A program made the translations under genes and the position numbers. 64,000 nucleotides of DNA from Isoetes taiwanensis. Its lineage: Eukaryota; Streptophyta; Lycopodiopsida; Isoetales; Isoetaceae. Position 1 is the stretch's first letter. Each line of letters starts with the position of its first letter. The notes below the pieces were generated by a model. That model made no database searches. It saw nothing but the letters and a program-made list of their open reading frames with translations, and was not told the DNA's origin. This document shows positions 10,179 through 63,550 of the stretch, piece after piece. The stretch is taken from assembly GCA_021234155.1 (NCBI GenBank), contig JAJEKV010000003.1:16724386-16788385 (forward strand), read 5' to 3'.

Positions 10179-10288
10179 GATACTAATGAGGAAGACGAGG
10201 AATATGAAGTTATTCCTCCAGCATGGAACGATCAGTTGATAAACATGGGGTACAACAAAAGCAGAATAGAATGTCCTAACGCTGCGGT
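10179..10288 (+). pseudogene. RT gene copy A, 5' exon piece before T1
   Basis: The exon opens after the acceptor TACTACAG and reads DTNEEDEEYEVIPPAWND, then GYNKSRIECPNAA. It is cut by LTR element T1 in the codon following NAA. The same reading frame resumes after T1 at 23,708 with no net shift once the target duplication is counted once. Copy C has the matching exon at 50,803 (EQGDEEPDIYN, then LDYDKCMIFSPN, then AIQTILGCI). This match supports the exon call and the acceptor. The function of this region is unknown; it is acidic and lies N-terminal to the Cys-cluster block. Confidence 0.7.
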
Positions 10289-11905
10289 TGTGACGTTTCC
10301 CAAAGACAAAGATACCTGGTCCTAAGACGATATCAGATCGTTGCCACGCGCAGACACGCCATCTCGATTGACGGGTAATGACGTAGCCGAGGAAGTAGCA
10401 CCCTAGGGGGCAACTTGCAAGGTGTGTGCATTTAATTATGGGCACATTTGCTCATGTGCACACTTATCCATGTGTGTGTCAATGTGTACATATTTATCCA
10501 TGTGTACACATTTATCCATGTGGATATCCTAGGCCACTTATTCAATATAAGTGGGGCCACATTCAATTATCCCACATGCCTAGATGGGATAATGGAACCC
10601 TAACCTAACCCTTTGTCTATATAGGTTAAGGAAACCCTAACTTGCCATTTTTCGTCCATAGGGTTTTAGAGCTCTGTTTTGCTTGCTCCAGGAGTCAAAA
10701 CCGCCTCCCAGACTCTGTGTGAGCGATTTGACTCATTAGTTTTCCCTTCTAGCTCCATCTTCGAGCAATTCAAATAGATGGTCGAAGTTCGTAAGGTGAG
10801 GAGCGAGCCAAGGATCAGATTTAGTCAATTTAATAGCCTAAACCATCTTCCGGGTCATTGTACCAAATGGTTTAGCCTATTAAATTGCCCATAGCAGCCC
10901 ATTTAGATTCCTGTGATACTGTGACTCTAACTAAAGAACCTAACTCTATGATATAGATTAGATCTAGTTCTTTAGTTCTTCCGTGATGTATATGGATGAT
11001 GTATCTCCTCGTGAACTCATTGTATTGGGAAGGGGGTAGAGACCCTAAGCCCGGTAGTTGATGCTCCTAGTTAACCTCTAGCACACCGTAGATTCGCCCG
11101 GGTACAAGAACCCCACCTGGTTGTGGGTGAAGGGGCCGACCGGCTTATAAGGAGGTTCGTGTTCGACCCTTGAACCATCCCTCCGGGTGTGTAAGGCCTA
11201 CCGGGATCATTGTGGACTAGGGTTCAATGGCTTGCCACCGAAAGTGTGGGCAAGGCATGGGCTTGACACCGTGGGTGATGCGCCACCCTCCATTGGGTTC
11301 AAGTCGGTCAAGGGCAAAAGGCCCTCTAGTCACCTTAATGAGTCAAAGATGTAGATCTCGAGGGAGTGATCCCTACCTGCCCCATCGGAACTGGGGAGAT
11401 GCAACCCAGGAATAGCCCCTTTGGCTATGCATCCGGCGGGCTACAGTTAGGTCCCAACACTTTTCAACCTACTCTGCAAAGTGTGCATAGGAGGGGCGGA
11501 TGGAGTGGACAACCCTAAGCCATGTTCTTATGCCAGCCAAATCCATTGCCATGAATTCTGTCTGCAATGAACTCTGGAGACCCAAGCCGTCAGTCACCCC
11601 TTGAGTCTGAGCCTTGGATAGGATTTCCCATGTGATGTACTGATCATTGTCTATGCAGATGTGTGATGAGCCACCCTACGAGGTGGTATGTGATATTGAT
11701 GTTGTATACTGACATGTATGTTTACGCTTCCGCAGCTAGGTCGACCCTGAGGGAGACAGGGTAAATGACCCCTTCATTCTTCCCATTAGAACTCATCAAG
11801 GTTGCAGTGATACGCGGAGGGCCGCGTATCGCTGTGGAGCCGGTATGGGGATGAACTCGCTTGTATAATGATGAGTGCACCGTGATATGAGTAGGGGACG
11901 CCACA
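10289..11905 (+). repeat. T1 5' LTR
   Basis: It starts TGTGACGTTTCC and ends GGGGACGCCACA. It includes a short-period repeat around CATTTATCCATGTG (10,430-10,530) and the family block near 11,473-11,525. It is homologous to 22,141-23,702, but its first about 100 bp are clearly different from the 3' LTR. Confidence 0.8.
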
Positions 11906-11907
11906 AA

Positions 11908-11922
11908 GGGTATCGTGAGCAA
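11908..11922 (+). other. T1 primer-binding site (tRNA-Met type)
   Basis: Two bases after the 5' LTR the sequence GGTATC..GAGCAATG resembles the common plant primer site TGGTATCAGAGC. It is read with one small difference at the central CAG. Confidence 0.6.
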
Positions 11923-12114
11923 TGTTCTCTGAGACCAAGAGCAAAGCACCGCCATGCTCCCAAAGAGTACTAACTTGATAGGATTCTCAAACCTCGAAAA
12001 GTGGGAAATTTTTTTCTCATTTTTGTAGTATATGCTAAGCTAGTAACAGTTAAGCAAATTGGAACATAAAAAGACTAAAAACAGTTGAGCCGAATCTTTC
12101 TAAGGCAAGAATGT

Positions 12115-12900
12115 CTCACACGTCGTGCCAGAGCATAAACTAAACTCTAGGTCTTGCCCTGGGTGCATCGTGCGAGACATTAGGCCATAATCACCTTAAT
12201 ACTTGATGAATTTTAAAAAAAGGTAACATGCTAGATCGAGTTTTAGGTAAGAGTTAGTTAATATTAGACCCAAGAAGTGTACGAGCAGATAGAGCGAGAA
12301 ATACAAGAAGAGGAGAGGGCAGAACGAGAGCAGGAGACCAAGGTTCAAGAAGCAGCAGAGCAGAAGCTGGTCCAACATTTTGAAGACTCAACAGCCTGCA
12401 CAATACACGCCAAGAGAGTAACTCTAATGAAGAAAGATATGCATTTAGCCAGTCATATCAAAGGAGAGCCTTATTAATTTCGTAAATGATAAAATTTTGT
12501 TTAATACAAAGTGTTTTTTGTAAATTATAAGTGTATGAAGTTACTTAATTAAGTTGAGTTAGTAAGTTCCAGCTTTTGTCTTAGTCAAAACAGACATTTT
12601 AGACCAATTTGAGAGGATGTCTCACACGTCGCACCAGGACTAAAAACAAAACTTCAGTTTTTGATCTGGGTGCAACGTGTGAGACCTTCATACCTAGACC
12701 ATGTCCAAACTAGACCAAAACACCTCCAAATTGACCAAGTAAGGGGTCCATTCTGCCTAATTCGATGAGACTAGCATGATTTGACCCTTAGATCATCCAA
12801 ATTGGACAAGTTTAACCCAATTAGAGTCAATGTCTCACACGTCGCGCCAGGAGCAAAAACAAAACTTCAGTTTTTGATCTGGGCGCAATGTGTGAGACCT
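12115..12900. repeat. Three copies of a GTCTCACACGTCG inverted-repeat unit
   Basis: Units at about 12,115-12,181, 12,617-12,688 and 12,831-12,900 each begin GTCTCACACGTCG and end with an imperfect inverse ending TGTGAGAC or TGCGAGAC. Each could fold into a hairpin of about 70 nt. Spacing is about 500 and 215 bp. They lie on the 3' side of the minus-strand Gypsy pol, so they may come from that element's LTR or leader. Confidence 0.6.
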
Positions 12901-13495
12901 CCAAACTTTGAACCTCCATAACTTGAGCTACAGAGCTCCAAATCGCCTGAAATTTGTTGCAATAGGACCGTTAGACAGCCTAGAATCCATTTATGACCTC
13001 AAACTAGGCTAGAAATGTCAAACCCCAGCTCAAAATGACCAAAATTGCTCAAACCCTTGAATTGTTTTTCCAAACTGTGGTTTGTTTGTAAATAGAAGCA
13101 TACCCCATTAGTACCTCGCAAGTATTGCTCTCGGCTCAAAGCTGATGCCTTACTCCTAGATAGAAGTGCCCAAGAACACCCCTTTGTTATAGTCATCTAG
13201 ACCTCAGCATAGCAACCCAAGTCCAATTGTTGGTACATCACCTCTGCTCATGCCAAAGGCATAAACCTTGACCTAATTTTGTGTCCTTCTAATAGAGTTT
13301 GGCTTATACAGCCGCCACATTGACACTCCATATTGCCAGGATACCTAGAAAGGAGCTAGAGTCTAGAGCTGCCCAAGTCACTCCATGTGTAGAGATTGGA
13401 CTCCCCCAAACCAACTTTGTTAGGACCTTAGAATATGCCTCAAACATCATGGAGGTTTTGCAAAACAACCCTCATGTCATGCCATACCACACGTC

Positions 13496-15843
13496 CTAAT
13501 GTCCATAGACTTGTAGATTATAGATATGTCTCCAGTAATGCTGCAGACATGCTTCGACATATTTTCTTACATCCCTTTCAAGCTTCGGCCAAAAGAAACG
13601 TCTTTTAACGGTTGCCAAAGTAGCTTGAATTCCTCTATGACCAGAATATGGAGGTTCATGACATTCCTGTATAACCCTCAACCTGTATGCTTGTGTAACA
13701 CAAGTACGATTTCGGTAGAGTAATAACCCATTATGAATCCTGTACTCTGCCAAAGGATCTCTTCCATCCTTTTGTACCTGAGCATATGGAGTAGCAAAGG
13801 AGGGATCACTTAGATATTCTTTTTTCATAGGTTCCAAATCAACAAATTCTGCTACAGAAATAGCTTGAATACTTATCCGACTTAATGCATCTGCAACCTG
13901 GTTCTCCTTCCCAGGCTTATATTCAAGCTGCATCCCTTCAAAATCTTTTATAGTGTCGATGAGCTTTAATTGCCGCGCATTGATAATATCCTGTGTTTGT
14001 ATATGTTTCAAGCTTTGCTGATCGAATCGAGCCACAAATTTAGATCCTATAAGATAATGTCTCCACTTCTTAAGGGCATGAACTAAGGCAATTAATTCTT
14101 TTTCATAAGCACTATACTTTTGCTCTAAAGGTTTGAGCATTCGGCTGACATAAGCTAATGGATGTCCATCTTGCACCAGTACTGCACCAATAGCATTTCC
14201 ACTTGCATCGGAACAAACTGTAAAAGGCTTATTCCAGTCAGGCAGTACCAACACTGGTTCAGTTGCCATACTCTCTTTTAAAATTCGGAAAGCTTCCTCG
14301 GCTTCCGAATTCCAAACAAAGGGAGTATCTTTCTTTAAAAACCTGCTAAGGGGAAGGGTTATTTTTGCAAAATCCTTCACAAATCTGCGATAGTAACTGC
14401 ATAGCTGTACAAAAGATCGTAAGTCCTTCAGGTTTTCAGGCCGAGGCCAATCAATAATAACCCTAATCTTTTCGGGATCCATCCGTATGCCTTCTTTGGA
14501 TATGATATGACCTAAATATCCAACTTCTTGCATAAAGAACCTGCTTTTGGACTCGTTAACAAACAACTTATTTTGCCTTAGAAGGTCAAAAACCTGTTGA
14601 AGATGCTTCTTATGCTCCTCAATAGTTCCACTATATATAAGTATGTCATCAAAGAAGACTACAACACTTTTCCCTAAGACAGGTGCTAGAACTCTCCCCA
14701 TGAGGCGGCAGAAAGTTGCCGGGGCGTTGGTCAGACCAAAAGGCATTACGCGAAACTCATAATGACCAAAAGTTGTTCTGAATGCCGTTTTACCAATGTC
14801 TTCTTCCCTAATTCGGATTTGATGATATCCTGATTTTAAATCAATTTTGCTAAATATGCAAGCTCCTCGTAATTCATCAAATAGGTCATCTGCTCTGGGC
14901 ACTGGAAATTTACCCTTAATAGTCAACTTATTGAGAGCTCTATAATCCACACACATTCTATATCCCTTTTTTTGATAAGAATAACAGGTGCACCAAAAGG
15001 GGAACAGCTTGGCCGTATTAGCTGTCATTCTAACATCTCTGCTATCTGTTTCTCGAGCTCTAATTTCTCAAAATGGCTGACTCTATAAGGTGCCATGTTT
15101 GGAGGTTGAGCGTTTTCTTGCAACTGTATAGCATGATCTTCAGGACGATGAGGAGGCAGATCTAAAGTTTCCTCATCTTTGAAGAGATCGTCAAATTGTC
15201 TCAGGAAACTGTACAGCTCGAGAGGCACCTGTGATGGCGGATCAGAATTTCTCAAGTATATAAAGTATGATTCAACTTCACCCTGTATTAACTTCTTAGT
15301 TTCAGAGTATGTCAGTAGGGGTTCTGCTTGAGATGTGGAATCTGTACACAACTTCAAAGGTTGCCCTTCAACCATTATAGTTACTGTCTTTTCCCTGTAA
15401 TTAGGTCGGGCATCATACTGTTCTCGCCATCCAATTCCTAATATCACATCCATAGTACCTAGAGGAGCCATAATCAAGACTCTTTCTTCAGAGTACTGCC
15501 CTATTTGAATGGGAGCTACCACATATTTGTCACACTGGTTCCTAGGGCCTTTCAAACCTTGAACAACTGTGATCTTTGTTTGCAAATCACAGATAGGTAA
15601 TCCTAACTTATACACCAAGTTCTGCGAGATAAAGTCATGTGTTGACCCATCATCAAGTAAAACAGTCACATCTTGACCTTTTACTGAACCTTTCATCTTA
15701 AACAACCATGCTTCCGAAGACCCTGTATCATCATCTGACATATTCTTTAGGTATGCGATTTGCAGTCTCCCTTTTTCCTGTTCAATAGCTGCAAGCTTTC
15801 CTTTATTCCTCTCTTCTCCTTCCCTGGAAGTTTCGGGTACCAT
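13496..15843 (-). mobile_element. Truncated Ty3/Gypsy pol nested in T1
   Basis: This is a fossil pol segment read on the minus strand, in two long frames. From 15,843 downward it shows a retropepsin (VLLDDGSTHDFIS, near 15,650). An RT follows (YRALNKLTIKGKFPVPRADD; RVMPFGLTNAPATF; VVFFDDILIYS). Then come RNase H (FTVCSDASGNAIGAVLVQDG...YSAYEKELIALVHAL) and the beginning of an integrase zinc-finger region (GHRGIQATLATVKRRFFWP), where it ends. Gag, the integrase core and LTRs are absent, so it is truncated at both ends. The frames are long, so it is fairly young compared with the 1-3 kb remnant. The Ty3/Gypsy assignment is secure; its exact borders within T1 are not. Confidence 0.9.
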
Positions 15844-15859
15844 CTTGCTTGCTTATAGA

Positions 15860-18800
15860 GCCCAAAATGTTGTACGAGAGCCCTTCAAGTAGACCCTTAG
15901 ACTCTAGAATATACGAGCATTGCTTTCGAAGTACAGGGCCAGAGCCACAGAAGAGCTAGAGGCGCAACTTCTTGAAGACATCAAGGTCCCAGCCGATGTA
16001 CAGACAGATAAGGAGAGGAGACCGAAAAGGCAGACTCAAGAGAGGGAAGCACAACGACAAACACCTCAACTGACAAACGAGTAGAACAGGACACCACCGG
16101 CCTATCATCAATCTTCATCAAATGGGAAGAATATTTGGTAACCAACGGCATCAAGAATTTTCTAGATGTCAACCTCCTGGCTACCGCGTCCACGAGTTCA
16201 CATCAGAAAGAGGATCTCGACACCTTCACCAACTCGACGCACACGAGTTTCAAATGGAAGAATACAAGGCAGCAAAATACAGATGCAGGAAGACGTTAGA
16301 CATCGATGCCGCGTTAGCATCACGAGCTAGGGCCAAAGGGCATAACCTTCCGTCGAGGAGATAAGTCATAGCGACACAGGAGCGTATAGAAACCGGAGGG
16401 AAGACAACCACGACCTTGCTGCCAGCAGCTCAAGCGAATGTCATGCAACGTCAACAAAAGGAGCAACCAAGCTAGGCAACCACAAAGCACCTAAGGCTGA
16501 CCCGGACGAGCTTCCAGCTCCCTTGCACTAGCAGGAGAACTTTCATCGGTTCCAAAAAGTAGGAGACCATGAGGGGGAGGAGACACATATCAGGGAACAT
16601 CCCCGACTTGAAGGCCTATATCAGCATTAGGGGCAAGATCAAGGAGGAGAATATTCCGCTCGAACAAGAATTCCGGACCCAGAAACATCGAGAAACCAAA
16701 GGAAGGACGACCTTACTACGTTAGCCAAGGAGTGCAAGACTCGAATGGATAGGACCCAAGGGACAGAGGAGACGACCTAGCCAGCAGGTACAAATCATGC
16801 AAAGGTGACCAGAAGGGGCCATGGTAGGGGCAACGGAGATGACCACACTTCCAGGCACAGGAGAGGCACTTCGGAATGAAACAAAGCCCAAGCAACAGGA
16901 GTCGCACTCAGAAATTCAACCTGCGGAGGAATGACAATGCCTGCCTACCGACCATGATCTCAGAGCTTCGAAGACATTCAAGAATGCTCGACTGCAATAG
17001 CCAGGTGACCCTATTCAAGCGACCAATGGCACCGCACATCGGCAACCTTGCAACGACACACCGCATGTAGGGACGTTGAGCGGTCACCGCATTCCTTACG
17101 ACGGACATACACATTAAGGAGGAGCATTTTTTTCAAGGGATCACATCGATGAACACTCTTCGCAACTTGGGGTGACGAGCTCGGATCAGACATGAAGCTC
17201 AACAATAGTAACAGCATCTCAAGGAATCCCGGAGTCAACCAGAACGAAGAAGATGCAGCAAAACCGAAGAATTAAACGCGATAGGAGGAGGGGAAGCCCT
17301 AAAGGAGTATAAACATTTAAGTAGATCTTCATAGTTGTTTTGGAAAAGTGGATGAATTAAAATCCCAAGGTAAATGCGTATACGCCTATTGTATATCTCG
17401 GGCGTTCACACATATAGTGGAGAAACATGAGTTTAGAGTCATGTTTTACGGATTTAGCGCTTAGATCAGGAAGCTCCTTCACTTCGACTACCAAATAAGG
17501 AAGTAAGGAAGCACAACGATAGCCCAAGATCAAAATGGAAGAGCAAGTACGAGGGAGAAACGACCAGAGCCCAAGCAAACCTTCGACTCCCAACACTTCC
17601 GGAAGTGCCTTCAAGTAGAAGACCGCTCGTCCACCCAATGTCAGAATAAGAGACAACACCGAAGATCATCAGCGCTGCACCAGGACATCGTCAGGGCGCA
17701 ACACTACCTCTTGTGGCAGCAGCATCACTTGACAAACTTATGACACGAGTGGCCTCAACAATAGAAGGAGGAATGACCCGACATCAACGAGCCAACTAAG
17801 AAGGCAACATCTCGACGATCATAATTCCACCTTGTGGTAATATAGGGTGATGCGCTATGACACGTGTATTAGATGGAGATGCACTTACGAAAGGCACTGC
17901 GACGAGGAGATATGCCTTCAACAACTAGGTGATGGCTTCGTCAGGTACTCCTACCAGTAATTAGAAGAGAAGAAGCCGATCATATCTCCGACATGTGGCA
18001 CGTCAAACGCCCAAGGTAGAAGCATTCGACACCTTAACGACAAGGATAGCAACTGAAGCACCTTCGGCAAAAAGAGAGTTCAAGATAATAGCCAGGCTAT
18101 TCAACGACAAGAGTATATCTAAGGCAGGTACTTCTTCAAGTCAAAGGTCAAGCTGCGCAGATATAAGGATCCATCACCCCGACAATATAGCCAGCAGGGA
18201 GGAGAGCCATGATGCTTTACTTGACAGAGAGACCGACATGTATGGAGGGATAAAGGTCAGGAACTGAAAGCTGGAGAAGTGCTAGCAACCGACTTCTTCC
18301 ACGAGCTCCCTAGAGGCAACAGGAGGATCAAAACTGACGAGCACAATCAAAACCACCGGAAGGTACCTCAAGACAAGAAGACGACATAGCACTGAGGAAT
18401 GTGACAATGTCCAAGCCATGTGACCGAGGGGATCAAACAAGGAAGATTGGAAGCTCGATGGAGAAGCAACTAGGTGAGACAAGGCGAGACTTGCATGCAA
18501 CTTGGTGAACCCAAGGATGGACGATTCAAAGAACAACTGCAGAAGAGAACAACTCCAGAAGAGTATAGCCAAAGGAATCGCGCATAGCCTCAAGAGACGC
18601 CTCCAAATAGCTTCAAGTATCATGAAGGGGGGAACAATTACCGCCCGAGAATAGGATCAGGAAGCAGACCGAAATTGTCGAAGCAGCAACGACCAGCACA
18701 CCTTTAGTTAGAATGTGATGCAAAGCGTATTGTGCCATAGCCGACAAGCATCGGAGGGCCCAAGTATATCAAGAAGTTACCCCGGAGTACGAGCTGACGT

Positions 18801-21800
18801 ACAAATAGGAGGATACAGATCGTCAACACCATTGCACCGGGAAGAACACCGATGACATTACTAAGGAGTAGGTGTGCAACTCGAAGGGATGCACAAGGGG
18901 GACCTAATAGCTCTAGTAGTAATTGTAATTATGTAAGCTATATGCTTTGCATATATAGTTCCCTTGTTATTCCTTCCCTCCCATAGCGTAACCGATCAAA
19001 GGAAGAGATGTCAGGCAATTTGCAGGGGTGAAGCAATCAACATCCTCAACACTCTTCAGGCAACAAGGGGACTCGACGTATGAGACGTCGATGGAGTCGA
19101 AGAAACAATATCGGATACAGAGTCGTCCTTTAGCTGCCAAGACAAAGAGTTCAAGATGAAAGATCTCTTTCAACGGCGCCACCTTCAGGCTTTTGAAAAG
19201 CGGCATGGAAGATTTCAAGTGATCAACTACACCATCAAAGCCACCAGCAATGAGAGGCAACCCCTACATCAAGGAAGACCCACCGTCAAGGAGACTGAAG
19301 TATCGAGAGACTCGGAAGAACATTACCTTACTACTTCAAGCAGGCAACGAGTGGATAAGCTTCTAGCAAGCTCAAGGATCTAAGGCCATGGGGCCTAGTA
19401 GGTTAAATGTATGGACGGTAACATCCATATTGGGATTAGAAGGCATTTCCAGATATTCTCCCTGAAAGGATCGCCCCAATATTGAGCTAAGCATCAAGGA
19501 TTGGGAAGGAAATGCATAGGAGTAACTATAATTATACACGATTGTTAACAGACATCCAACATATTGAAACCACTTGGTGAGATTGATCACCTCGCTAAGA
19601 AGGATTCATTGCTAGGATAATTGTTGACCATGTATAAATCTAGTACCTCCAAAAGAATAATCCAACCGAAAGAAAAGAAGTAATCTAGCAAGTCCGGCCA
19701 ACTTGTTACGATGGCATCAATTCGATTGGTAGGAATATTCCAAGAGTTTAAATAACTAAGAAAGGGGGAATCTCTAGAATATAAAAGAATAGTACATGCA
19801 AGGTACATCTAAAATAAAAATTATAGTAATCAAATAGTCTTTTGAGACAAAAGGAATTGTCATGATGACAAAACCTTGTGGTTTAGAATCGTTCTAACTA
19901 AGTAGGTAACCCATAACTATATTGAAATAAATGACAACATAATATGTGCATCCATCTTAGATGGTTATATATGCTAGCTAAGGCTAGTAAATTAATGCGC
20001 TAAGTAAGAAGCGTATAACCTCTTAAGGGGAGAGAATAGATATGACATTGTGTAGAACGTCATTGAAGGGGTGCAGGACCATTTTCTTTTCGAAGAAATT
20101 GGGAGGGCTCAATATTATGATTGAACGTACTTGCATCGAATTGACCGACCCGTAGAATAGAGTTCACTCCGGCAATGGGCGAAGCGAACAGAGCGTAAGA
20201 TAGATAGATACCTTAGTGCTCAGGAGGCCTTCAACGTGCGAGACTGACGTAGTAGCTATCTACACCAATGAAGTGGAGCAAAACTATGGGAGCAATGCAA
20301 CGACCAAGTCATCTCCAAATTACTCGACGCCAGCTTAATGGGTGGATGCGTTCTAGCCTTAGGTAAGGTGTGCGCATGTATTATAAGCTTTAATGTGTCT
20401 TATTGATAAGTTAAATATACACCCTAATAACTGCATAGAAATTGCTGTACGTATATGTATCATAGGGAAAGAAGATAAATAACAACGATAATATGAGGTA
20501 GCATGTTAATTAATCCTTCGCAAGGATGCAATTCCTTCCAAGGATAGCTATATGACCTCGGGGTCCTTATAAATATAAATAGAAAATAGAATTCAGATAT
20601 ACTTAAGTGCATCTTAGGGATATACTTCCAAGGGTAATGCAGGACCCAAGGAAGAGAATAAGAAGCACATATAATTCTTGTGTATGATAATTAAAATCTT
20701 GTTTATGTAACAATAGGTCTAAATCAGGATTATTGTTTAAATAATCGCGATCTAAAAGTCGTTAAATATTGAAAAGCTTAGAGTAAATATAATTGTACTA
20801 TTGGAAGCAATATATCCAATACTACTATAATGTTAATAAAAAAAAAATTACCATAAGGTAATTAATATAATTGCATGCATCAAGGGAAGTTCAGCAGGAT
20901 CATGCAGGGGTCCAAGACTGTAATGTTTACTTAAGACGTTAACAGATGCTAGCCGACATGCAACAGTTAGTGGAGGAAGTACGAAGACATCCCCTAGCAG
21001 CAAGAGGCCGGCAGAAGAACATAGCGACAAGCTCTGCATCGACAAGGTCAAATATGCAGATATGCTCGGCAAGGTCATCTCCGAAGTAATTGGCTCAGGC
21101 ATGTCGATTTATGTCTAGATTAATTTCATGTGTAGTTAAGATTAATCTACGCATGCAGCCTATGCTAGGTATGGGCTGCATGCGTATTTACCGATGATGG
21201 GACCACTACGGTGATCTCTAGGACGTGGTGTAATGTCATTGTAGGCATGACCGCGGTTTTGCTTGAATGAGTTGGAAGGTAGATTAAAAAGTCTACTTCC
21301 GTCCCACGGAAGTAGACGACCTCGAGAGATAAGAGGTCATTCAGGAATGCATTGATAGGAAAGCACCTCTAGTCAATGCCTACGGGGAGGACCCTATCCT
21401 TCACGCCCAAATACGGGAAGGACCCTATCCTCCACGTTTCAGGCAACTAAAGGTGTAGGCATGAGCGTCATATATGCATTATAGGGCGCTGTCTCCCCGG
21501 CCACGATGGAAGAAGCATCCTCTTCCTACGCCGGGAGATTAGTCATGCATTCATGTAGATAGATGGGGTGGTTCCCTTATAACCAACTTTACATTAATAT
21601 TCTAGCGTGTTGTGAATTCAGGAGGCCAATGAGAACGAAGAACCGGCGGGGAGCTGCACCACGAGCACTTGTATAGATAGTTCTAGAGTAGTTGTGATTT
21701 CTACCATTGAAACTAATCGCTTAAATCTTGTGTAAGCTAGTAAATATGTAATTATAGATATTGTAAAATTAATGCAGGATTTCAAGGTGCAAAGACTTGC

Positions 21801-22127: not shown

Positions 22128-22140
22128 AAGGTGGGGAGAA
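22105..22140 (+). other. T1 hairpin and polypurine tract
   Basis: A perfect hairpin GATGCTG/CAGCATC (22,105-22,111 and 22,116-22,122, 4-nt loop) precedes the purine tract AAGGTGGGGAGAA that abuts the 3' LTR. A second copy of the purine tract lies just upstream at 22,088-22,099. T2 has the same hairpin and tract beside its own 3' LTR. Confidence 0.7.
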
Positions 22141-51910: not shown

Positions 51911-53521
51911 TGTGACGCTCCCTGAATATATACGGCGCTCCGGACGTATACATACAGGGACTTCCCCCTCCCATGGCAATCAGCTCACCATGAGCAGGGC
52001 CCTCCGTCTAACTCGGGCCATCTATGGAAAGATGCTCGAGTGAAGGACACAGAGGGGTCATTCGGCCCACGCCTTCAATGGGACTCCTAAGTTGCGGAAG
52101 CGTGAATACATGTTAGCACACAACATAAATCATATATAAATAAATAACCACCACGAAGGGTGGCGCATCCATCCAAGTACCAACGGCAAAGAATATGCAT
52201 CTAAACCTAAGAAAACACCCCAAACCCCAGGTTCTACCCCGGTTCAGACTCCTGTGAGGATGGACTGATGGCTCGTTCTCAAGAGATCAGCAGACAGAGG
52301 TATAACCTGGCGTTGGCTGGCATAGAACATCGGCTAGGGTTGTCCACTCCATCCGCCCCTCCTGTGCACACTTTGCAGATGAGTCCAATCATGCTATGGC
52401 GTCACTATAGCCTTCCGGACATGCAGACTCAAGGTATCACCCTTCGAGCCTACTACAGGGTTCATGAAGCCCCGTCCGATGAGGCAGGTCAGGGAAGCGT
52501 CCCCTTCCAGGATCACAGTGGTTCCATGGGTGAGCTAGAGAATAGTGCCGCATCAGCGACCCCCGCATCCGTACCCGCGACTTACTCACCCTAAATCTAC
52601 TCAAAGTGCAAGATGCTCCATACGGATCACACCTCTACACCCAGGGAGTGTCAGACCCATACCCGGCCCTCTACGTGACCGGCTATCAGGCCTAGCCCAC
52701 TGTAGGAGTCTCAGGAGCCTTTTATGTTCGTGCAAGACCCCACCCCCACTTCACCACTGTGTCCCTTGTTTGGTGCTAAGTCACCCCATAGCATCCACGA
52801 CTCGGTGGTCTCTTGTACACAGGCCGCAATTAACGGGTACTATGGAAGATACTAGGAGCATACTAATAACATGGGCCACAGAGGTCTCTACCCCCCTTAA
52901 TCCCTGCTTTCTGGAAGACTAACAGCGATACTACCAAAGATACATCCATCCATCCATCCATCACAGAGCATAATCAATAGTTGAGAACAGTTCTAACTAT
53001 CAAACAAGGGTTAATAATCATCAGAGATAAGCAAAGAAGCCTGACAGAGGCGCTAACCTACTAGAATCACAACTAAGCTAACTATGTACTAACCGGAACC
53101 ATAGCTAGCTCCACCATCCCTCCGGGTCGCCATCCTTCTGGCTGGAACAGGGTCGAACAGCTTCTCAGGGTTGGGCAGCACCTCCTCCTCCATCTCCAAT
53201 TGCCCCAAATCGAATTGGGGCAAATGGGGGTACAAAATTCCAATTTGGGTCCCAAGTTAGTAACTCTCCCTTGCCCAATCGATTTGGGCCAGGTGGCAGC
53301 TCCGGGTTGGCTAATATTAACTAATTTGGTATTTTAGCCCTTTTTAATATTAGGTTAAGCTCTAAATTCGAATTAGGGTTTAAGGTTAGGTTTCCACTTT
53401 AATGATTAATTATTAACATAGCTAACCTTAGCTTATGAATAATTAATGTGCCATTAATTATTCATAGTGACGTGTCACGTATTTATACTTAAAAAGGCAT
53501 ATAAATATGTGGAACGTCACA
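51911..53521 (-). repeat. T2 3' LTR
   Basis: Its ends read TGTGACGCTCC...GGAACGTCACA on the plus strand. It contains (CATC)n near 52,946 and the family block near 52,335-52,380 (minus orientation). Confidence 0.92.
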
Positions 53522-53558
53522 TTCTCCCCACCTTAAAAGTGATGCTGTCCTCAGCATC
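53522..53558 (-). other. T2 polypurine tract and hairpin
   Basis: On the minus strand AAGGTGGGGAGAA abuts the LTR. It is preceded by the 7-bp hairpin GATGCTG/CAGCATC, exactly as in T1. Confidence 0.7.
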
Positions 53559-56500
53559 AAGACTACTCTTGTTGCAGGGCAACACATCGTACATTGGAAG
53601 GAAGTCTCCCCTCCTTAAAGAGATAGCGTGAGATTATAAGTCACACAGACGTTGTCATGTTCAAAGTCAACAGGCAAGGTTTGTGAAAGTCTAACTGTTT
53701 CATTCGTGGTGAGGAGTTCAGAGTTTATCTAATTTAGAAATCATTCTTTTTATACATATAGGTAACTGATTATATATTAAAGACAGGTATAGATATAAAG
53801 AACTTCTATTTGTTGTTATATTATAATACAGAGTTATTAACGTCGCACTCTTCTGTGTATATATCTATTATATTCTCCCTTTACTTTGCAAGTGATTTTA
53901 TTACAGCCAGGCTTAATGTAATTTACGTCTAAATTTTGTTTTCCTATTTTGTTACAATTTTAACAACTCATATATTGCTATCGTGAGTGTTTAGATGCCC
54001 CTGACATTTATAGTTACCCTTTAATAGAATTATATATTGTACTGTATTTGCCATTTTGACCTATATACTTTAATATTAATTACAGACAGACGTTCTTCAT
54101 TTATTATTCATAACGTTGTTATAACATTATCTAAGTCTCGTTATTCCCTTAGGAGTTTGTGTAAGACATACATAACTATATCCTTCTATTATATCTGACT
54201 ATTTGTTTAAATAGCTTTCCCCTTTTGAGTATCTTTAATGTTGCCACACTCAGACTCGCGATCTATAGTTTACACTTAGTCAGAATCGATAGCCGACCAC
54301 GATATCACGAGGGTAAAGACCCTTAGAAAGTGAGACTACATTGTTGGTTTAAATGTTGGTTTAATTTCAAATAAAGTTCTAAGGTGTAAAACTCCAATTG
54401 CTATATTGTTGGCTTTAAGTAACCATGGGTAAACCCTTTGTGGAGTTAAATCTAAAATCATGGATCTAAGGCTTGTATCTGATAATGCTGCAAAATATTA
54501 GATGGTTCCTTAGGTTAATTGACCAACGGAATTTCGAGGCGAACTAATACTAAAACGAGTTTTACCTCACATGAGCACACCTATTAATTCATTAGCTATA
54601 TCTATACATTTATTAGAGATACGGAAGCATCAAAAGCATGTCCGGTGCTTCTTGAGGCTATCCTTATTTTGGATGGTTACTCGAGAAATTGGTCTTTGGT
54701 ATCTGATTGAAACACTGGACCTAATAATTACGAGGATTGATTTATCATGCAGCATATATCGCCATTCAACGTAGAAGGAGACTGGATATGGCACCATAGA
54801 TTTGAGAGGTAATGTACTAAGGTGGAAACTGGATTATAAGTACCCAGCTTTTGAAAGAGAGATCACTTTAGAAGTGTAGGTTTCGACAATGGTGGTGAAG
54901 GTATAGAATGTCGACCCGACATTGTATAGCTATTGCTACTTGAAGCGAGGTATGATTCGCGGAACGGTAGAGAATAATGTTGTATGAGGATGTTAATCCA
55001 TAAAGTATGGATTATAAAACTACACATACATTGTGTTTCGAAAGGAGATTGATGTTCGTAGCCACGTGAATACGCTTAATGACGTTGGTCAAATGCATGA
55101 CCATTATGCATGGTATAAATTAAGGGAAATGGACACATCTTATGTCTGTTGGGAGCATCAAGATGCGAAATAAAAGACTGGACAATCGTGTGGAACGTAG
55201 GTTCCATACAAGGTCAAGAGAGTCGAGGTCGAACTAAACGAAGGTAGGAATAAGCATTCTGTAAGACTGCTGGAATGGAAGATGCAATTGGTAGCAGAAG
55301 GTGCAACCGTCTGAAAGTTACAAAGTATGTTGGAGCTTTGCCGAAGCTAAACTATGAAGGAAAGTTGACCTTCAACTAATGATACACTAGGGAGGCAAGT
55401 AATGGACCCACAAGGCCAGTGTTTGACAAGAGGTACTTGAAAGTTGTAAACAACGTTTCAAATATAGAGAGTTTGGAGGGACACTTTGAATAGACCAAAG
55501 TCTGGAGTATGAACAAGGTAGGTGCCCTATGAACATCTCACCAAGGAGAATGTGCTGTAGACTCGGTAGCGTGTGTGTATCCCGAGGAGTAGCTCCGCGT
55601 TGGTATCCGCGTACTAGGACCATTTAATGGTAAAACATAAGGCTAAAAAAAGATAGGATGTGTAATAGAACTTTTAGTTCACATATATGAATACGGAAGT
55701 AATGAAGATAAGAATTCCTATAGTAGACATTAAGTATGTCCACTAGGGACTTAGGGTGGCATGTGCCCCTGTGGAATTTATGACTAGAGCTTGAGGACCA
55801 AGGCAAACTAAGGCTAGAGAGTCTAGAAGGTGTGGTGTGAAAACCACAGCATATATAGTACAAGCTAAACGAGTTGAGGAAATACAATTGCGGGAAGTAT
55901 GAACATAGCTAGGTGGCTATGTCAACGAATTACATATGAGTCTAGACTTAGGGTTGGTGCACACATGTTACTATATCGCATAATAACAACGTAGTGGTTT
56001 CGGATGTTTGAATGTCGATTGTGAGATGCAGATGTATGTTATATTGGAAGATGGTAGAATATTCGTACAAGGCTCGTGAAATATTACTTGACAATGTTTA
56101 AAGAAGGAGGATAATAATATGCTTAAGGTATGATCCACCAGAGATAAGCATTCAAGCTATCCCAATGGTTGGAGTTGACTGTCTTAGATACGTCGTACTA
56201 AGGGATATGGAAAGAGTTTAAAGCAGTGAAAATAGCTAGAGTAAGTCTAGCATATACGATGATGTTACATTCAAAAACATCCCGAGGATGGTTGGAACAG
56301 TGTTGGAATAACCGATAATAAGAGCTTAACTACTGAAAGGTTCGAGATACCAATGAATGACCTCAGTGTTATAAGCTGAGGGCATCTATTCAGTTTTGGG
56401 ACTAAAAAGATGTTTAAAATATGGCGTCTCCCTAATGGAAGAAAAGAAGGAGTACGATGACTTTGGCGATTATACCTTTAGGGATAACCGAGTCGAGGCC

Positions 56501-59490
56501 AATACATAGGAATTCCAAGTCCCGATAAAAATCAAGACGAGGTGCATAGATTAAGGGAGTGAGATTATATATAGACCAATAGTCCATATATCCTAAGAGT
56601 TACCCTACTCGTGGGGACCAATTGTAGGTACTGAAGTAGAAGGTGGAGGATCCGTTGCCTTGGGGCATAGACCCCTTAGAACTTATGACTTTGGAACTCT
56701 TAATACGGTAAGAACTAGGAGAACCATATGGCGGTTACTAACAAAGATTGAAACATTGGGTTTTCCTATTAAGAGACGAAGAGGTTGTAGTGCCTCTACT
56801 TCATTATAAGGGAGCCAAGGATGACAACATTTGAAACTGATCAAAAACTGAAGTCCACATGATAACTTAAGAAAAATAGATTAATTGTGACTAAGCATAG
56901 TTGATATTGAGGACACAAAGGATCCTTAGCGAAAGAAGCCTTTAGGAAAGCTCCTCATGTGGGGTAGTAGCTTTCGGAATTATGGCATAATCCTGTGGGG
57001 GAAATATAGTTTATGTACGGGGTTAAAGTACCATGAGGCACTAAGAGAATGGTTGAAATAGCTAGAGACCCTGTCAAAATATAGGCAACATATACAAGTC
57101 CAACATAAAGTTGGCCCCTGTCCATTTGGGAAGTAGGTGGCGAAGCCACATCATAAAGGTACATAGGCAATGGGTTTGTTTGAGAGAACTACCACGGTTA
57201 TAGTTTAGCTAAGTTAGAGCAGAGCTCTAGCATTGTGGGATGTGGAGATATGTTTATCATGTACATACCATGTACACATACGATAAACATCTTAGGGAGG
57301 TCATCTAGGTGGCGACATAAGGAGAGAAAGACGAGCGTATCCTAAAGTTACTGATGAAGAGTCTGGAGATACGTTCAAAATGTGCAAAGGACCGTCAATC
57401 CATTGCATGCTAGGGTATGATGTGGTAGTTGGCACTTGGAATAAATGTCAACGGCCACTAGAATCAAGCTTAAGATAAGGGGGTTGAATAGTACAATAGT
57501 ACAATTCCAGGATAGGTATCAGATAGCAGTTACCTGCTAAATGTTCGAATGTGTCTTGCATAGACACCTAAGACTCGCTTTTCCCGATGGATCAGGCAGA
57601 GCTAACGCCATGGGTTACCTGGGGGTTCAAGTTAACATATACAGGACTCGAACATTGATACAAGTCCGGGTTATATTAAATGTAGGTAATGGTAGAAAGG
57701 CTGACAGAATACAAGGCAGACACCTTGATGACTGCAGGTAACTTACGATTCCTACAAAGGCTCAGTCGCTCTTAGGCCATGACTATGGCTTAAATGAGGA
57801 TGCCAAGTCATTTGGAATGCCACAACAATGTGATAGCATCATGACAGAGAAATGTAATGACTAACATTTCCAGGATGTAGGACAATATTGAATCATAACC
57901 CCCAATGATAGGTGGGTTGAAAACATAAGGGCCATATAATAGTGGTTTAGAGGCCACAAGACGGTTAACAAAGACGTGAAGGAGTAAATGGATTGGTGAC
58001 TCTACTGAATAAAGGTCGCAACAAAAGGGTGATTTGTATACGTTGTGGCAGACGTAAGTGCCAAGATATTGAAATTCGGTCATAGACGTAGAAAACATAT
58101 TGAAGAAGAGAAGGAATGAAGGACCCTTATTAACGATATTTAGCAATCTGGATAGAAAGGTTATTTCCTAATGAAGGGTAGTCTTTGCTAACATGCAAAG
58201 ATATACGTGCGGCTTGAAAGGCAGCAAGAGCTGAAAAACTCTTTAAAGATTTGGTGTATGGCTTAGGGAAGAAGACTTCCATGTCCTAGGAGAACATGGT
58301 GGATTCAATTCACCAAGAACCTTTTTAATGGATAGATAGGTGGATAGGATTTTTTTACGTCATGCCACATTGGCAGCGTCCATGAGGACATATGACGGAC
58401 CCCCAGAGACTTGAACACAAGATCTCTTAATAGAGGAGGCCTATCTTGAGAGGTATGGGGATGGCATTATCCTTTGGAATATTCACATAATCCCTTGGAA
58501 TATGTAAATACATTGCCCCAACCATATCTAGATACCCTAGAAGGAGGCGAGTAGTCAACAATGGTTGGAGGCCATTGGAATGTACGGGAGAACAACTCCA
58601 AAAGAGGGTAGACCATTGTCACTTTGCCAGGTGCGTGGCGCAGATAATTAATCACAGCCATATAGGCGGTGAAGTTTGACACTAAATAATACTAGAGTTT
58701 GTAGCCGGGACTAATTAGAATAAAGTGCTGACATTGTTGTGGGGGTGCTAACACAAGCACTCACTACGTGTTACAGAGTATGTATCACGATGTGGGGAAA
58801 TGGTGCATAAAAAGAACACGACCAGTGAGAAGAAGAAGAAGAAGAAGAGATTTTAACGTCACGCCATGGACCCAAAGAAATCAAAACCCATGGTCTAGAG
58901 GGGTGCTGCATGGCAGTCCCTAGTTGGTTGGACGAAAAGAGATCCTTTCTCTGGGAAATGAGACGAGTCAAGGCTTAGACACTAGAGAGAAACAACGTTA
59001 ATTATAATTATGTCTATAAAATATTACTTATATAACGTCGAATAAGGTCTAATATAAAGCATATGAATGAAGTATAGATTGAATTATGGCAAGGCCCGAA
59101 GAGATTTTGTTATCAAGGCATTTACCACAGGAAAAAATATTTAAAGCTATAGGTCGAAGAATGACGATAACTGGACATTATTATGGTCGCGTAAAGAATA
59201 TCCAGGGTAAATAGTGGATTAAAATTCAACTTAGAAGTTTCTATCTTACTCCGAGGAATTCCCTTCCATCGCTCAATGTGAACGTATGTCGATATGGTTG
59301 CGGGAGACATTCCACATTAATGACAAGAACCCTTAGGGTATTCCTACCCCACCATGGTTGCACAAGTCCGACGGAGTTGTTACCACCACCGCGTTGGTTT
59401 AGGGAAGAGTGATGGTAGACAGGAGTGTCTCTAGAGAAACAGAAGTACTATTGGTTAAGTACAACAAGAGACTATTACATGAACTAAAAA

Positions 59491-59562
59491 GAGGCTTACC
59501 CTGTTGGTAAAGGGTTTGGCTGGGCTGTGTGAGGTCAAGGGTTCAATCCCACCATGTGCCTC
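59491..59562 (+). other. 72-nt tRNA-like block
   Basis: The 5' GAGGC pairs with the 3' GCCTC. The D-arm is perfect (CCCT, loop, AGGG, with GTTGGTAA in the loop). A B-box GGTTCAATCCC sits at the T-arm position. Overall length is 72 nt. The anticodon arm does not fold well and the outer acceptor pairs are imperfect. The best reading is a tRNA-derived SINE head or a decayed tRNA, opposite in strand to T2. Confidence 0.45.
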
Positions 59563-59573
59563 TTTCTTTTAAA

Positions 59574-59716
59574 AGGAGTTGTGGTCTAGCAATAGAATAT
59601 TAGATATGTATAAGAAATACATAAAACAATATATCCATCAAAAGGAAAGATGGCATGCCGGTAAGGGACCTAAAGTTGGAATTAGGAGATCATGGGTTCA
59701 AAACGTGGACAGTCAA
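59574..59716 (+). other. Second possible Pol III-type block
   Basis: GTGGTCTAGCAATAGAA resembles an A box and ATGGGTTCAAAACG about 110 bases later resembles a B box. Together with the preceding block it may be one composite SINE. The evidence is weak. Confidence 0.25.
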
Positions 59717-60126
59717 CGGTCAAAACCGGCGGACTTGGAGATTTTTGAGTTTAGAATCGAAAAAAGAAAACCCTTTTTACCCAAGTGCGCCAATTTTGGA
59801 TTTTCTCTCTGGTTTTAACCATTTTGGGTCGGCCAACGAGTGTTCTAAGCTATTTCAAGGGTCCCCGACGCAATGGAACAAAAATTTTTCGAATCCGAGC
59901 TTCCTAGAGAAAGTTATGGCCTATCTAAACCTGGGTCCTCCCGTCACACCTTTTTCCCTCCAAAATCGCCCTAACTTCCTAAATCTCAACAATTTCTTAC
60001 ATCAACCCAGCACGAGACTAAATCACCGAAAGGTTAGGCAGTCCAACTAGCTTAACTCCCACTAAACCACCGAACTAACGGGTTAGAGATTTGGTCAGTG
60101 CTATGATTCCGGTCAACCAGAATCAT

Positions 60127-60139
60127 GGCTCTGATACCA
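60127..60139 (-). other. T2 primer-binding site (tRNA-Met)
   Basis: On the minus strand it reads TGGTATCAGAGCC, a perfect match to the usual plant initiator-Met primer site, one base from the LTR. It fixes the element's orientation. Confidence 0.9.
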
Positions 60140-60140
60140 C

Positions 60141-61752
60141 TGTGACGCTCCTTGAATATATACGGCGCTCCGGACGTATACATACAGGGACTTCCCCCTC
60201 CCATGGCAATCAGCTCACCATGAGCAGGGCCCTCCGTCTAACTCGGGCCATCTATGGAAAGATGCTCGAGTGAAGGACACAGAGGGGTCATTCGGCCCAC
60301 GCCTTCAATGGGACTCCTAAGTTGCGGAAGCGTGAATACATGTTAGCACACAACATAAATCATATATAAATAAATAACCACCACGAAGGGTGGCGCATCC
60401 ATCCAAGTACCAACGGCAAAGAATATGCATCTAAACCTAAGAAAACACCCCAAACCCCAGGTTCTACCCCGGTTCAGACTCATGTGAGGATGGACTGACG
60501 GCTCGTTCTCAAGAGATCGTGACAGAGGTATAACTTTGGCGTTATCGGCATAGAACATCGGCTAGGGTTGTCCACTCCATCCGCCCCTCCTGTGCACACT
60601 TTGCAGATGAGTCCAATCATGCTATAGCGTCACTATAGCCTTCCGGACACGCAGACTCAAGGTATCACCCTTCGAGCCTACTACAGGGTTCATGAAGCCC
60701 CGTCCGATGAGGCAGGTCAGGGAAGCGTCCCCTTCCAGGATCACAGTGGTTCCATGGGTGAGCTAGAGAATACGTCTTGCATCGGCGACCCCGCATCCGT
60801 GCCCGCGACTTACTCACCCTAAATCTACTCAAAGTGCAAGATGCTCCATACGGATCACACCTCTACACCCGTGGAGTGTCGGACCCATACCCGCCCCCCT
60901 CTCGTGACCGGCTGCTCGGGCCTAGCCCATTGTAGGAGTCTCGGGGCCTTTTATGTTCGGTGCAAGACCCCACCCCCACTTCACCACCGTGTCCCTTGTT
61001 TGGTGCTAAGTCACCCCATAGCATCCACGACTCGGTGGTCTCTTGTACACAAAGCCGCAATTAACGGGTACTATGGAAGATACTAGGAGCATACTAATAA
61101 CATGGGCCCACGAGGTCTCTACCCCCTTAATCCCTCGCTTTCACGAAGACTAACAAATGATACTACCAAAGATACATCCATCCATCCATCCATCACGAGC
61201 ATAATCAATAGTTGAGAACAGTTCTAACTATCAAACAAGGGTTAATAATCATCGAGATAAGCAAAGAAGCCCCGACAGAGGCGCTAACCTACTAGAATCA
61301 CAACTAAGCTAACTATGTACTAACCGGAACCATAGCTAGCTCCACCATCCCTTCGGGTCGCCATCCTTCTGGCTGGAACAGGGTCGAACAGCTTCTCAAG
61401 GTTGGGCAACACCTCCTCCTCCATCTCCAATTGCCCCAAATCGAATTGGGGCAAATGGGGGTACAAAATTCCAATTTGGGTCCCAAGTTAGTAACTCTCC
61501 CTTGCCCAATCGATTTGGGCCAGGTGGCAGCTCCGGGTTGGCTAATATTAACTAATTTGGTATTTTAGCCCTTTTTAATATTAGGTTAAGCTCTAAATTC
61601 GAATTAGGGTTTAAGGTTAGGTTTCCACTTTAATGATTAATTATTAACATAGCTAACCTTAGCTTATGAATAATTAATGTGCCATTAATTATTCATAGTG
61701 ACGTGTCACGTATTTATACTTAAAAAGGCGTATAAATATGTGGAACGTCACA
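60141..61752 (-). repeat. T2 5' LTR
   Basis: It matches 51,911-53,521 almost throughout. Differences cluster at CAG/CTG sites. Confidence 0.92.
61177..61196. repeat. (CATC)n run in T2 LTR
   Basis: A short tetranucleotide repeat, also found at 52,946-52,965 and, as (GGAT)n, in the solo LTR near 8,195. It is a family feature. Confidence 0.8.
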
Positions 61753-61757
61753 CCTAT

Positions 61758-62230
61758 GCTGAAAATGGTGATATTGACCAAACTCCTGAACAAGACTATG
61801 AGACATGTTGTATTAGCCTTCATTTCATATCTGGAGGTTAGGAAAACACTATTTAGTATGACAATGGCAGAAAACTCTGAAGCTAATCTAAAGGAAGCAT
61901 TTGGCAATAACAAAATGGCAGATATTTGTGAGAAAATGATTAAACACGTGTCCTTTCTGAAGGATAAAATTACTGCAAACAGGAAACAGTCTTATGATAA
62001 ACCTTATGTGAGCAGCTTCTCTAGCAAGCCCATGCAGAAGACTACTGTCACTCCCAGATTACCACCTAGGATTACAAGTGATCCAAAGGCCAACATGGTG
62101 AATACTATGCAATCTTATAACACTACTGCTGGCAGTGTCTCTAAAAGCCTATGGCTAATTCTGTGACTGGAATGGAGGAAAAAATCATTTCCCTGGAAGA
62201 CAATACGCTAATGAAAGTGGACTATGTAGA
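61758..62230 (+). pseudogene. RT gene copy C, Cys-cluster exon (end)
   Basis: The frame resumes after T2 with MLKMVILTKLL, FISYLEVRKTLFSMTMAE and ICEKMIKHVSFLKD, aligning with copy B (FVAYLEVRRILIGMTMKISE; VCEKTIK). It then runs into a Ser/Pro/Lys-rich tail ending at a stop near 62,166. A second frame (GMEEKIISLEDNTLMKVDYV) continues to about 62,230. The position of the final stop before the intron mirrors copies A and B. Confidence 0.65.
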
Positions 62231-62433
62231 AGACTCAGTATAATAACTTCTTGACTAGAAGTTCAAGGTTGTTAGTACCATAAAAAAAGAATTAGCCTGA
62301 CCCTTAGGGACAGGCAGTTTTTGAAAAATTCCAAAAATTTGACAATACTTTTGTCTTAACCTTACAATTAATACAAGCTGCTTTTAATGTTGGAAAAATT
62401 TGATCAAATAGCTAACTCTACATATTTGTGTAG

Positions 62434-63550
62434 GACAAAACCATGAAGACCAGGATTGTTACGAAAGATATCAACAAAAAGAAACATATGACAAGCAAAG
62501 AAAAGGACAAAGAGAAACGAATAGTTCATATGACATTTCTATCCAAGGCTTTGGATGGCTTTGATATCAGGCAAATCTTCCATGATGTAATGTTTGAAAT
62601 ATTTCAGGATAGAGGTTCAGACATTGTGCAAAAAACCACCTTTGCTTGGAGGTATATCAATCAAATTAGGGATAAGGTTTACAAACCCTACCTTATTTTT
62701 GCTGAGGAAGCAGCCAAAAAGTGCCCTTACAAAAACCCTAACTTGGCAAGGTTTATAGATAAGGAAATTGGCCATATTAGAACCACTAATTTGGAGATTG
62801 TTCATTCTGTTAAACTCAGAAAAGCAATGGGTTATGGCTTGAATCATATACCTGACAATGCACTTAGCATTCAGGAGTTTATGTCAGAATTCGAAAAATT
62901 ATGTATGCAATTCTTTATGGTGCATAAGTATGACTTGCTGGATATCACAGAAGAGGACAAGCTGAACATATGCAACTTGCTTCAAAAGTTGGCTCATACA
63001 GAGATTGTGGAGCTAAAAAACAAGTTACCACTCAAAAGTTTCCTATGGAAGGATCTAGAGGTACACAAAAATGTTGAATGGTTAAACAAAAACATGTTTG
63101 TGGCAGGTTTAGACAAAACAGCGAACAATGCAGTGTTTATCTGCCCTTGGCATGTTGTCCAGATGGCAAAAATGAGGCTTCAAAGTGCTTTTCCACAAAG
63201 AAGAAACATCCCCTGACGAGGTAAAAAACAGTTGCATATCTGACATTTCTAACCTTTTAGGGTTGGAACAAATTCTCAGCAAAAAGCTATCATATCTTAT
63301 GGCCACATACAAGGAGCACAAAAAGGAATACAGGTGGCTTACAAATGCACATGACACCATCTCAGAAACAACGAACATTATAACTGGTATTCTGAGCAAT
63401 TTCTTAGATATTTGGCCTAAAGTTTGTTTTAAAATGACTGCCAAATACAGGTTTTGGAACCCGAAAATGATTAATGCATGCTGGATTATTAATTCCATAT
63501 ACGATGTAGTTCTCAACCTACCTTACAGAATCCACAATGTGTTTGCAGCC
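62434..63550 (+). pseudogene. RT gene copy C, reverse transcriptase exon (cut by T4)
   Basis: After the acceptor TTGTGTAG a 257-residue frame begins MKTRIVTKDINKKKH. It includes FLSKALDGFDIRQIFHDVMF, RKAMGYGLNHIPDNALSIQ and GLDKTANNAVFICPWHVV, then changes frame near 63,190. The second frame holds SKKLSYLMATYKEHKKEYRW, LTNAHDTISETTNIITGI and INSIYDVVLNLPYRIHNVF. It carries about 115 residues at its start (to RTTNLEIVHSV) that copies A and B have lost. T4 cuts it just where RT motif A is expected, so the catalytic half lies outside the window or is lost. Similarity to copies A and B is moderate, so the subfamilies separated long ago. Confidence 0.75.

What the first reader, a model, noticed from the sequence alone, without database searches (positions are those of the whole stretch)
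10179..63550. Cluster of multi-exon Penelope-like RT genes in a plant
Seen: three copies of a spliced gene share an RT exon with GLNHIPD, DKAxNN-FICP, a YLxxYKxHK-YRW block, GIPMG-CSP and YMDD. Known: this order fits Penelope-like elements, which are unusual among retroelements in keeping introns and are little described in land plants. Inference: this is an undescribed PLE lineage, or a host-adopted RT family, with two old subfamilies side by side (A/B and C). No GIY-YIG domain is visible.
Basis: partly seen in the sequence, partly recalled or inferred. Interest (0 to 1): 0.85.

Follow-up and report, generated by a model that had tools for sequence, protein, structure and literature searches.

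The report
Telomerase-like jumping genes in a quillwort
The window holds dead copies of a large, recently active family of retrotransposons in a quillwort whose copying enzyme resembles telomerase, whose genes keep introns, and which insert at simple repeats although no DNA-cutting domain can be seen.

Summary
Three degraded copies (B1 and B2, a head-to-tail duplication; C, an older relative) lie at about 9436-63550. The host is very probably Isoetes taiwanensis (assembly-size match). The RT is telomerase-like and Penelope-like (PLE): the model of an intact relative matches TERTs best, and the family groups with PLEs that carry an N-terminal endonuclease (support 100). It is not host-adopted: 65 of 65 scored hits in this genome have E<1e-106, 52 without a stop. 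Three B relatives with open ORF1 and RT share one plan: T-tract, terminal repeat, body, terminal repeat, T-tract (repeats 99%, 97%, and 81-95% alike). Alignment shows three exons: exon 1 (ATG, inside the repeat), exon 2 (ORF1, its stop one base before a conserved GT) and exon 3 (RT, after a conserved CAG), all under purifying selection. A G-rich box precedes a T-run or (CA)n after the RT. No GIY-YIG was found in any exon. I infer RT expression by skipping exon 2 and priming at simple repeats; neither is shown. New variant of a known kind.

The parts
9436..9986 (+). 3' end of a terminal repeat R (copy B1), ending CTAGTTCAGGCTGGG plus T-rich run, followed by the start of the element body
   Evidence: 98% to 48127-48676; same junction in intact elements
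10179..10288 (+). B1 exon 2 (ORF1), first part, after 3' splice site ATACTACAG|
   Evidence: same acceptor in three elements with open ORF1
10289..23702 (.). LTR retrotransposon inserted in B1 exon 2 (LTRs 10289-11905 and 22141-23702, 89% alike, TSD GCGGT); not part of the PLE
23703..24830 (+). B1 exon 2 (ORF1), continued
24831..35928 (+). second insert in B1 exon 2, with about 0.6-kb terminal repeats (TSD GGATT, my reading of the sequence)
35929..36262 (+). B1 exon 2 end; 5' splice site TGAG|GT after 36262
36406..38037 (+). B1 RT exon 3 remnant (stops, frameshifts, YMDG, motif A region deleted)
38186..38207 (+). B1 G-rich box plus T8 after the RT stop
38200..39543 (+). B1 3' terminal repeat R, first half (also lies 5' of B2)
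38768..39070 (+). exon 1 (ATG; 101 codons; CAG|GTT donor) inside R
39541..42728 (.). duplicated LTR-retrotransposon remnant (internal piece and LTR) ahead of B2 exon 2
42729..44175 (+). B2 exon 2 (ORF1) with one internal stop; 5' splice site TGAG|GTATTT
44319..45948 (+). B2 RT exon 3 remnant; 5' deletion of about 500 bp at 44318, 95-bp deletion near 45034 removing motif A
46097..46118 (+). B2 G-rich box plus T8
46111..48668 (+). B2 3' terminal repeat R, followed by a T18 tract (48669-48686)
46651..46953 (+). exon 1 copy inside the 3' R of B2 (donor CAC|GTT, degraded)
50803..51910 (+). C exon 2 (ORF1), first part, after acceptor GATATAG|; one frameshift
51911..61752 (.). LTR retrotransposon splitting C (LTRs 96% alike, TSD CCTAT); not part of the PLE
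61753..62166 (+). C exon 2 (ORF1), continued
62434..63550 (+). C RT exon 3 after acceptor CTAAC..GTGTAG|, one frameshift near 63185, cut off before motif A by an LTR starting at 63551

Best explanation
The copies are fossils of a Penelope-like retrotransposon family of Isoetes. An element is R-body-R between simple-repeat tracts (T-tracts in 3 of 3 B relatives examined). The terminal repeat R holds exon 1 with the only conserved start codon and presumably the promoter (inferred). Exon 2 encodes ORF1p (about 520 aa, with a Cys cluster); exon 3 encodes a TERT-like RT with no endonuclease seen. Exons 2 and 3 both begin in phase 0 and lack a conserved ATG, and exon 2 ends in a stop codon one base before its 5' splice site. 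So exon 1+2 would give ORF1p and exon 1+3 (exon 2 skipped) RT (inferred). Unspliced RNA is the template, as introns stay in genomic copies (inferred). Reverse transcription starts next to a G-rich box, at a U-run or (CA)n, primed by a matching A/T or CA/TG tract in the target; reading from one unit into the next leaves R-body-R (inferred). Shown: anatomy, splice signals, selection, TERT-like fold, clade. Not shown: the splicing choice, the priming, the source of the DNA break.
Against: No transcript was seen. The full splice pattern was seen only in T-type loci (14): the RT-start block was found in 24 of 41 loci, and in L036 the ORF1 stop is not followed by GT. The 5' exon 1 of E49 and the exon 1 copy of B2 have damaged donors. 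Two non-TERT rows (a spliceosome protein and a viral polymerase) also begin before residue 101. ORF1 gave no fold (pLDDT 34.7) and no Pfam match, so a diverged endonuclease there is not excluded. The search of this genome for GIY-YIG did not complete. Chlamys sequences were not held. The simple-repeat junctions had no shuffled control.
Confidence: 0.8

Rival explanations
1. RT is made as an ORF1-RT fusion by +1 frameshifting or stop readthrough at the ORF1 stop after exons 2 and 3 are joined, like Gag-Pol.
For: The RT frame is +1 to ORF1 across the spliced junction, and the stop lies one base from it.
Against: The codon before the stop varies (AAA, ACT, GCA, ATT) and the stop is TGA or TAA, so no slippery site is kept; exon 3 fits exon 1 in phase 0.
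Confidence: 0.15
2. The elements are EN-bearing Chlamys-type PLEs whose endonuclease is too diverged to be seen, perhaps in ORF1, and it chooses the simple-repeat targets.
For: RT clade and CxC block as in N-terminal-EN PLEs. From recall, Chlamys occurs in spike mosses, lacks the CCHH motif of other PLE endonucleases, and its clade favours microsatellites.
Against: No Pfam match at E<=10 in three ORF1 frames and two frames with exon 1, though HMMER's filters drop most weak matches. The longest RT open frame is 768 aa, against 862-1004 aa for the four proteins with N-terminal GIY-YIG.
Confidence: 0.25
3. A host-adopted, non-mobile RT gene family.
For: Purifying selection on all exons and conserved introns.
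Against: Many dispersed copies, 99.3% identical terminal repeats in E50, T-tract and (CA)n junctions; L032 and L034 stop matching their sisters near the ORF1/RT boundary, as 5'-truncated copies would.
Confidence: 0.03
4. An endonuclease-lacking, telomere-associated PLE of the known Athena/Coprina kind.
For: No endonuclease seen and two main coding units; EN-lacking PLEs are reported in Selaginella.
Against: Junctions examined are at T, CA or TA tracts, and there is no TTTAGGG array in the window; RT kinship to N-terminal-EN PLEs.
Confidence: 0.2

Closest known systems
N-terminal-endonuclease PLEs of invertebrates (the Naiad type, by my recall of Craig et al. 2021, which is not held; here P0189, P0195, P0202, P0206, and P0124 with a sub-threshold GIY-YIG)
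   Same: RT homologous (190.6 bits on P0189; over profile positions 7-683 of 703 on a recalled relative, CxC and GHV-TxD-I-LR blocks included); sister group in the tree
   Different: those proteins carry GIY-YIG before the RT; none was found here
Chlamys PLEs of green algae, spike mosses, slime moulds (recalled) and Ectocarpus (PMC12477816, passages)
   Same: green-lineage hosts and, by recall, the same RT clade and microsatellite bias
   Different: by recall a GIY-YIG lies in the RT ORF; no sequence was at hand, so membership is untested
EN-lacking PLEs (Athena, Coprina, Selaginella, conifers)
   Same: no GIY-YIG; two main ORFs (PMC6431247, passages)
   Different: here R-body-R at simple repeats, and no telomere repeats in the window
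Canonical C-terminal-EN PLEs (Penelope/Poseidon; P0197 is taken as one by eye and recall, Pfam reported only RVT_1 for it)
   Same: tandem units giving terminal repeats and internal initiation in Poseidon (PMC11167929, parts 1-2 of 4); an intron in one Penelope copy of Adineta vaga (PMC3846280, passages)
   Different: only about 8 bits between the family profile and a recalled relative; no GIY-YIG after the RT; no hammerhead ribozyme match
Telomerase (TERT)
   Same: best structural match over TRBD, RT and thumb
   Different: mobile and multi-copy here

Membership tests
Penelope-like elements (broad) | TERT-like RT | tested here: met
   TERTs head both lists for an intact relative (P0003)
Penelope-like elements (broad) | tandem or partial-tandem units giving pseudo-LTRs | tested here: met
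   R-body-R in 3 of 3 B relatives fetched at length and in L036
Penelope-like elements (broad) | introns kept in genomic copies | tested here: met
   by sequence comparison only, no transcripts
Penelope-like elements with N-terminal endonuclease (Naiad/Chlamys) | RT of that clade with CxC block | tested here: met
   against Naiad-type proteins only
Penelope-like elements with N-terminal endonuclease (Naiad/Chlamys) | GIY-YIG domain before the RT | tested here: not met
   exon 1, ORF1 and RT frames scanned; longest open RT frame 768 aa. A diverged nuclease in ORF1 is not excluded; the genome-wide GIY-YIG search did not complete
Penelope-like elements with N-terminal endonuclease (Naiad/Chlamys) | bias for microsatellites (recalled) | tested here: met
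   T-tracts in 3 of 3, (CA)n in 9 of 11 CA-lineage loci; no shuffled control
EN-lacking PLEs (Athena/Coprina) | no GIY-YIG | tested here: met
EN-lacking PLEs (Athena/Coprina) | telomeric position and repeats | tested here: inconclusive
   no TTTAGGG array in the window; position on chromosomes was not tested
Canonical C-terminal-EN PLEs | GIY-YIG after the RT | tested here: not met
Canonical C-terminal-EN PLEs | hammerhead ribozyme | tested here: not met
   (window, and eight loci of three lineages)
LINE or LTR RT | closest RT kin among LINE or LTR elements | tested here: inconclusive
   fold favours TERT over L1, R2 and group II; no LINE or LTR rows were in the tree

The most novel reading that the evidence does not exclude
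A plant retrotransposon with no endonuclease of its own that enters simple repeats by pairing a U-run or CA stretch beside a conserved G-rich box with broken repeat DNA, much as telomerase pairs with telomere ends, and that makes its Gag-like protein and its RT from one start exon by including or skipping exon 2.
Probability: 0.35. Interest if true: 0.8.

Novelty: new variant of a known kind. Interest (0 to 1): 0.62.

Why it matters
PLEs are the mobile sisters of telomerase, and it is open how an element without an endonuclease can live inside chromosomes. This family has many copies with open frames, some recent, in a sequenced plant. It shows a TRBD-like N-terminal part, a conserved G-rich box at the start of a simple repeat, and a gene layout in which a terminal repeat supplies the start exon. 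That makes priming at simple repeats and a splicing switch between ORF1p and RT directly testable.

Tried and rejected
Coordinates at 10289-11905, 22141-23702 and 41.1-42.7 kb first looked like shared 5' exons; they are LTRs of unrelated retrotransposons. My first view that ORF1 and RT are two unspliced ORFs (notes) was dropped. Telomere repeats and hammerhead ribozymes: none found. Viral contigs gave no relative. The PDB sequence search gave only two GAPDH matches at E about 0.07. The ORF1 model is too poor to use. The first tree had part of B2 in the wrong frame; one search replaces it. No PLE structure stood in the listed fold rows (50 of each list). Papers on Chlamys/Naiad (Craig 2021), Dryad (Lin 2016), Gladyshev 2007 and Terminons (2017) are not held; what I say of them is recall or another paper's words. 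Papers listed that hold both Penelope-like and Selaginella were not all opened (two of nine were).

Full report
What is in the window. Six-frame reading and self-comparison show RT-coding stretches at 36.4-38.0 (B1), 44.3-45.9 (B2) and 62.4-63.6 kb (C), each behind a second coding region (ORF1). tblastn with 122 relatives finds RT at these three places only. B1 and B2 are a head-to-tail duplication (20422-39543 ~ 39541-47427). C is split by another (51911-61752, TSD CCTAT) and cut at 63551.

The copies are dead. Against relatives, B1/B2 lack about 500 bp of the RT 5' part and 95 bp holding motif A (VADITKCYESIP in L040); B1 has YMDG; B2 has a stop in ORF1 and a frameshift at the deletion; C has frameshifts in ORF1 and near 63185.

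Host. The own assembly has 1,658,258,908 bases in 1110 contigs. Isoetes taiwanensis is reported as 1658.30 Mb in 204 scaffolds plus 909 contigs (PMC8566536, passages). The match is very good but is an inference. That paper's text has no occurrence of 'Penelope', and of two held papers with both words Isoetes and Penelope neither title is on this subject (listing only).

Relatives. A search with read-through B2 RT found 23 proteins (best E 4e-83), three of them named Selaginella moellendorffii, the other 20 unnamed and mostly on contigs of a few kb. A profile search found 156, with Selaginella and the moss Ceratodon among the 120 listed. Pfam matches the family weakly, as RVT_1 (17 of 18 members, best E 1e-5). 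In the own genome P0003 gave 65 scored matches of 3916 first-look candidates, all E<1e-106, 52 of 65 without a stop inside the match, longest open frame 768 aa. B2's RT C-half gave 130 matches (129 of 3233 candidates scored). These are best-scoring sets, so intact copies are over-represented.

Anatomy of elements with open frames. Three relatives of B (E49, E50, E51) have terminal repeats R around ORF1 (530-536 aa open) and RT (736-751 aa open). R is 2.6 kb in E50 (14 mismatches in 2613 aligned bases) and E51 (72 in 2621); in E49 it is 3.2 and 3.6 kb, with one block of 2.6 kb at 95% and further blocks of 81-86%. In 3 of 3, R starts at a T-run 156-162 nt after the last RT codon and ends GGG-T; T-tracts of 10-27 bases border the 5' R and of 15-17 the 3' R. 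Window B2 ends the same way in T18. L036, of another lineage, has 1.2-kb repeats ending in (TA)n. Nine of eleven CA-lineage loci have (CA)n after the RT, 95-206 nt after the last codon in the seven whose frame is open to the end; L010 and L018 have none. L031 and L032, 97.9% alike, part right after it. A G-rich box (such as ACGGTAGGAGGTAGGG or CTGTGGGTTGGAGGTGGGC) precedes the repeat in T-type and CA-type copies.

Exons. In 14 of 14 T-type loci with a recognisable RT start a CAG lies exactly 30 nt before the GR codon, in phase 0; 10 of 14 have an in-frame stop within the 25 codons before that block, and 11 of 14 have CTAAC upstream (my reading). The automatic count, which chose other AGs in some loci, gave CTAAC in 9 of 23 loci with 1.2 expected from shuffles; one further locus had no phase-0 YAG, and 17 of 41 loci gave no RT-start block. 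The ORF1 stop (TGA or TAA) plus G precedes GTA in 8 of 8 aligned sequences. A pattern that itself asks for stop-G-GT found 12 places (10 loci of 41 searched, B1 and B2), all going on to GTA, the codon before the stop being free. ORF1 begins after AATACAG in E49, E50 and E51, after TTGCTTAG in L036 and after GATATAG in C. Exon 1 lies in R: 17 of 17 aligned sequences (14 distinct copies, as L040, L045 and L047 are E49-E51 again) start ATGGG and 13 of 17 keep CAG|GTT; the 5' exon 1 of E49, L041, L044 and window B2 do not. Between E49, E50 and E51, pN is 0.10-0.36 and pS 0.64-0.91 in exon 1 (from the 3' R copies), ORF1 and RT; dS is saturated in six of nine comparisons.

How it may work. Exon 1 ends and exons 2 and 3 begin in phase 0, and only exon 1 has a conserved ATG. 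Including exon 2 gives ORF1p; skipping it gives RT. A stop one base before the junction would also spare the full mRNA from nonsense-mediated decay (inference). Frameshifting is the rival, but the codon before the stop varies. In Poseidon, reverse transcription starts inside the RNA at an AC-rich stem loop, and tandem units give pseudo-LTRs (PMC11167929, parts 1-2 of 4). The G-rich box with a U-run or (CA)n would be the matching start site here, primed by the target tract; reading on into the next unit would give R-body-R. The break could come from another element, the host, or an endonuclease not recognised.

Novelty. EN-lacking PLEs are listed for Selaginella, Pinus and Picea (PMC9033089, passages), and Chlamys PLEs for Ectocarpus (PMC12477816, passages). 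Searches of held papers (listings) showed no title or abstract start on a three-exon, terminal-repeat PLE of this kind in Isoetes; subscription papers are missing. I call it a new variant of a known kind.

Noticed in passing
window 3678-4166: Remnant of a lectin-domain (S-locus type) receptor gene, judged by eye from the translation.
   Followed up: no
window 24831-35928: Insert in B1 with about 0.6-kb terminal repeats (94% alike) and a GGATT duplication, carrying gag-pol-like remnants by eye: a second LTR element.
   Followed up: partly
window 13496-15852, minus strand: Gag-pol reading frames of a Ty3-type element (by eye) inside the LTR pair 10289-23702, on the strand opposite to the PLE copies; it may be nested.
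   Followed up: no
L001-L008, L019: One lineage of this RT family ends at (CA)n in the sense strand in 9 of 11 loci, another at T-tracts, L036 at (TA)n: lineages differ in simple-repeat type.
   Followed up: partly
P0019, P0104: Selaginella gene models carry an ORF1-like part or a long N-terminal part before the RT; named hypothetical or RT-domain proteins, they are probably PLEs.
   Followed up: partly
P0001-P0122: Many relatives sit on short contigs of unnamed organisms, so the clade probably reaches beyond plants with known genomes.
   Followed up: no
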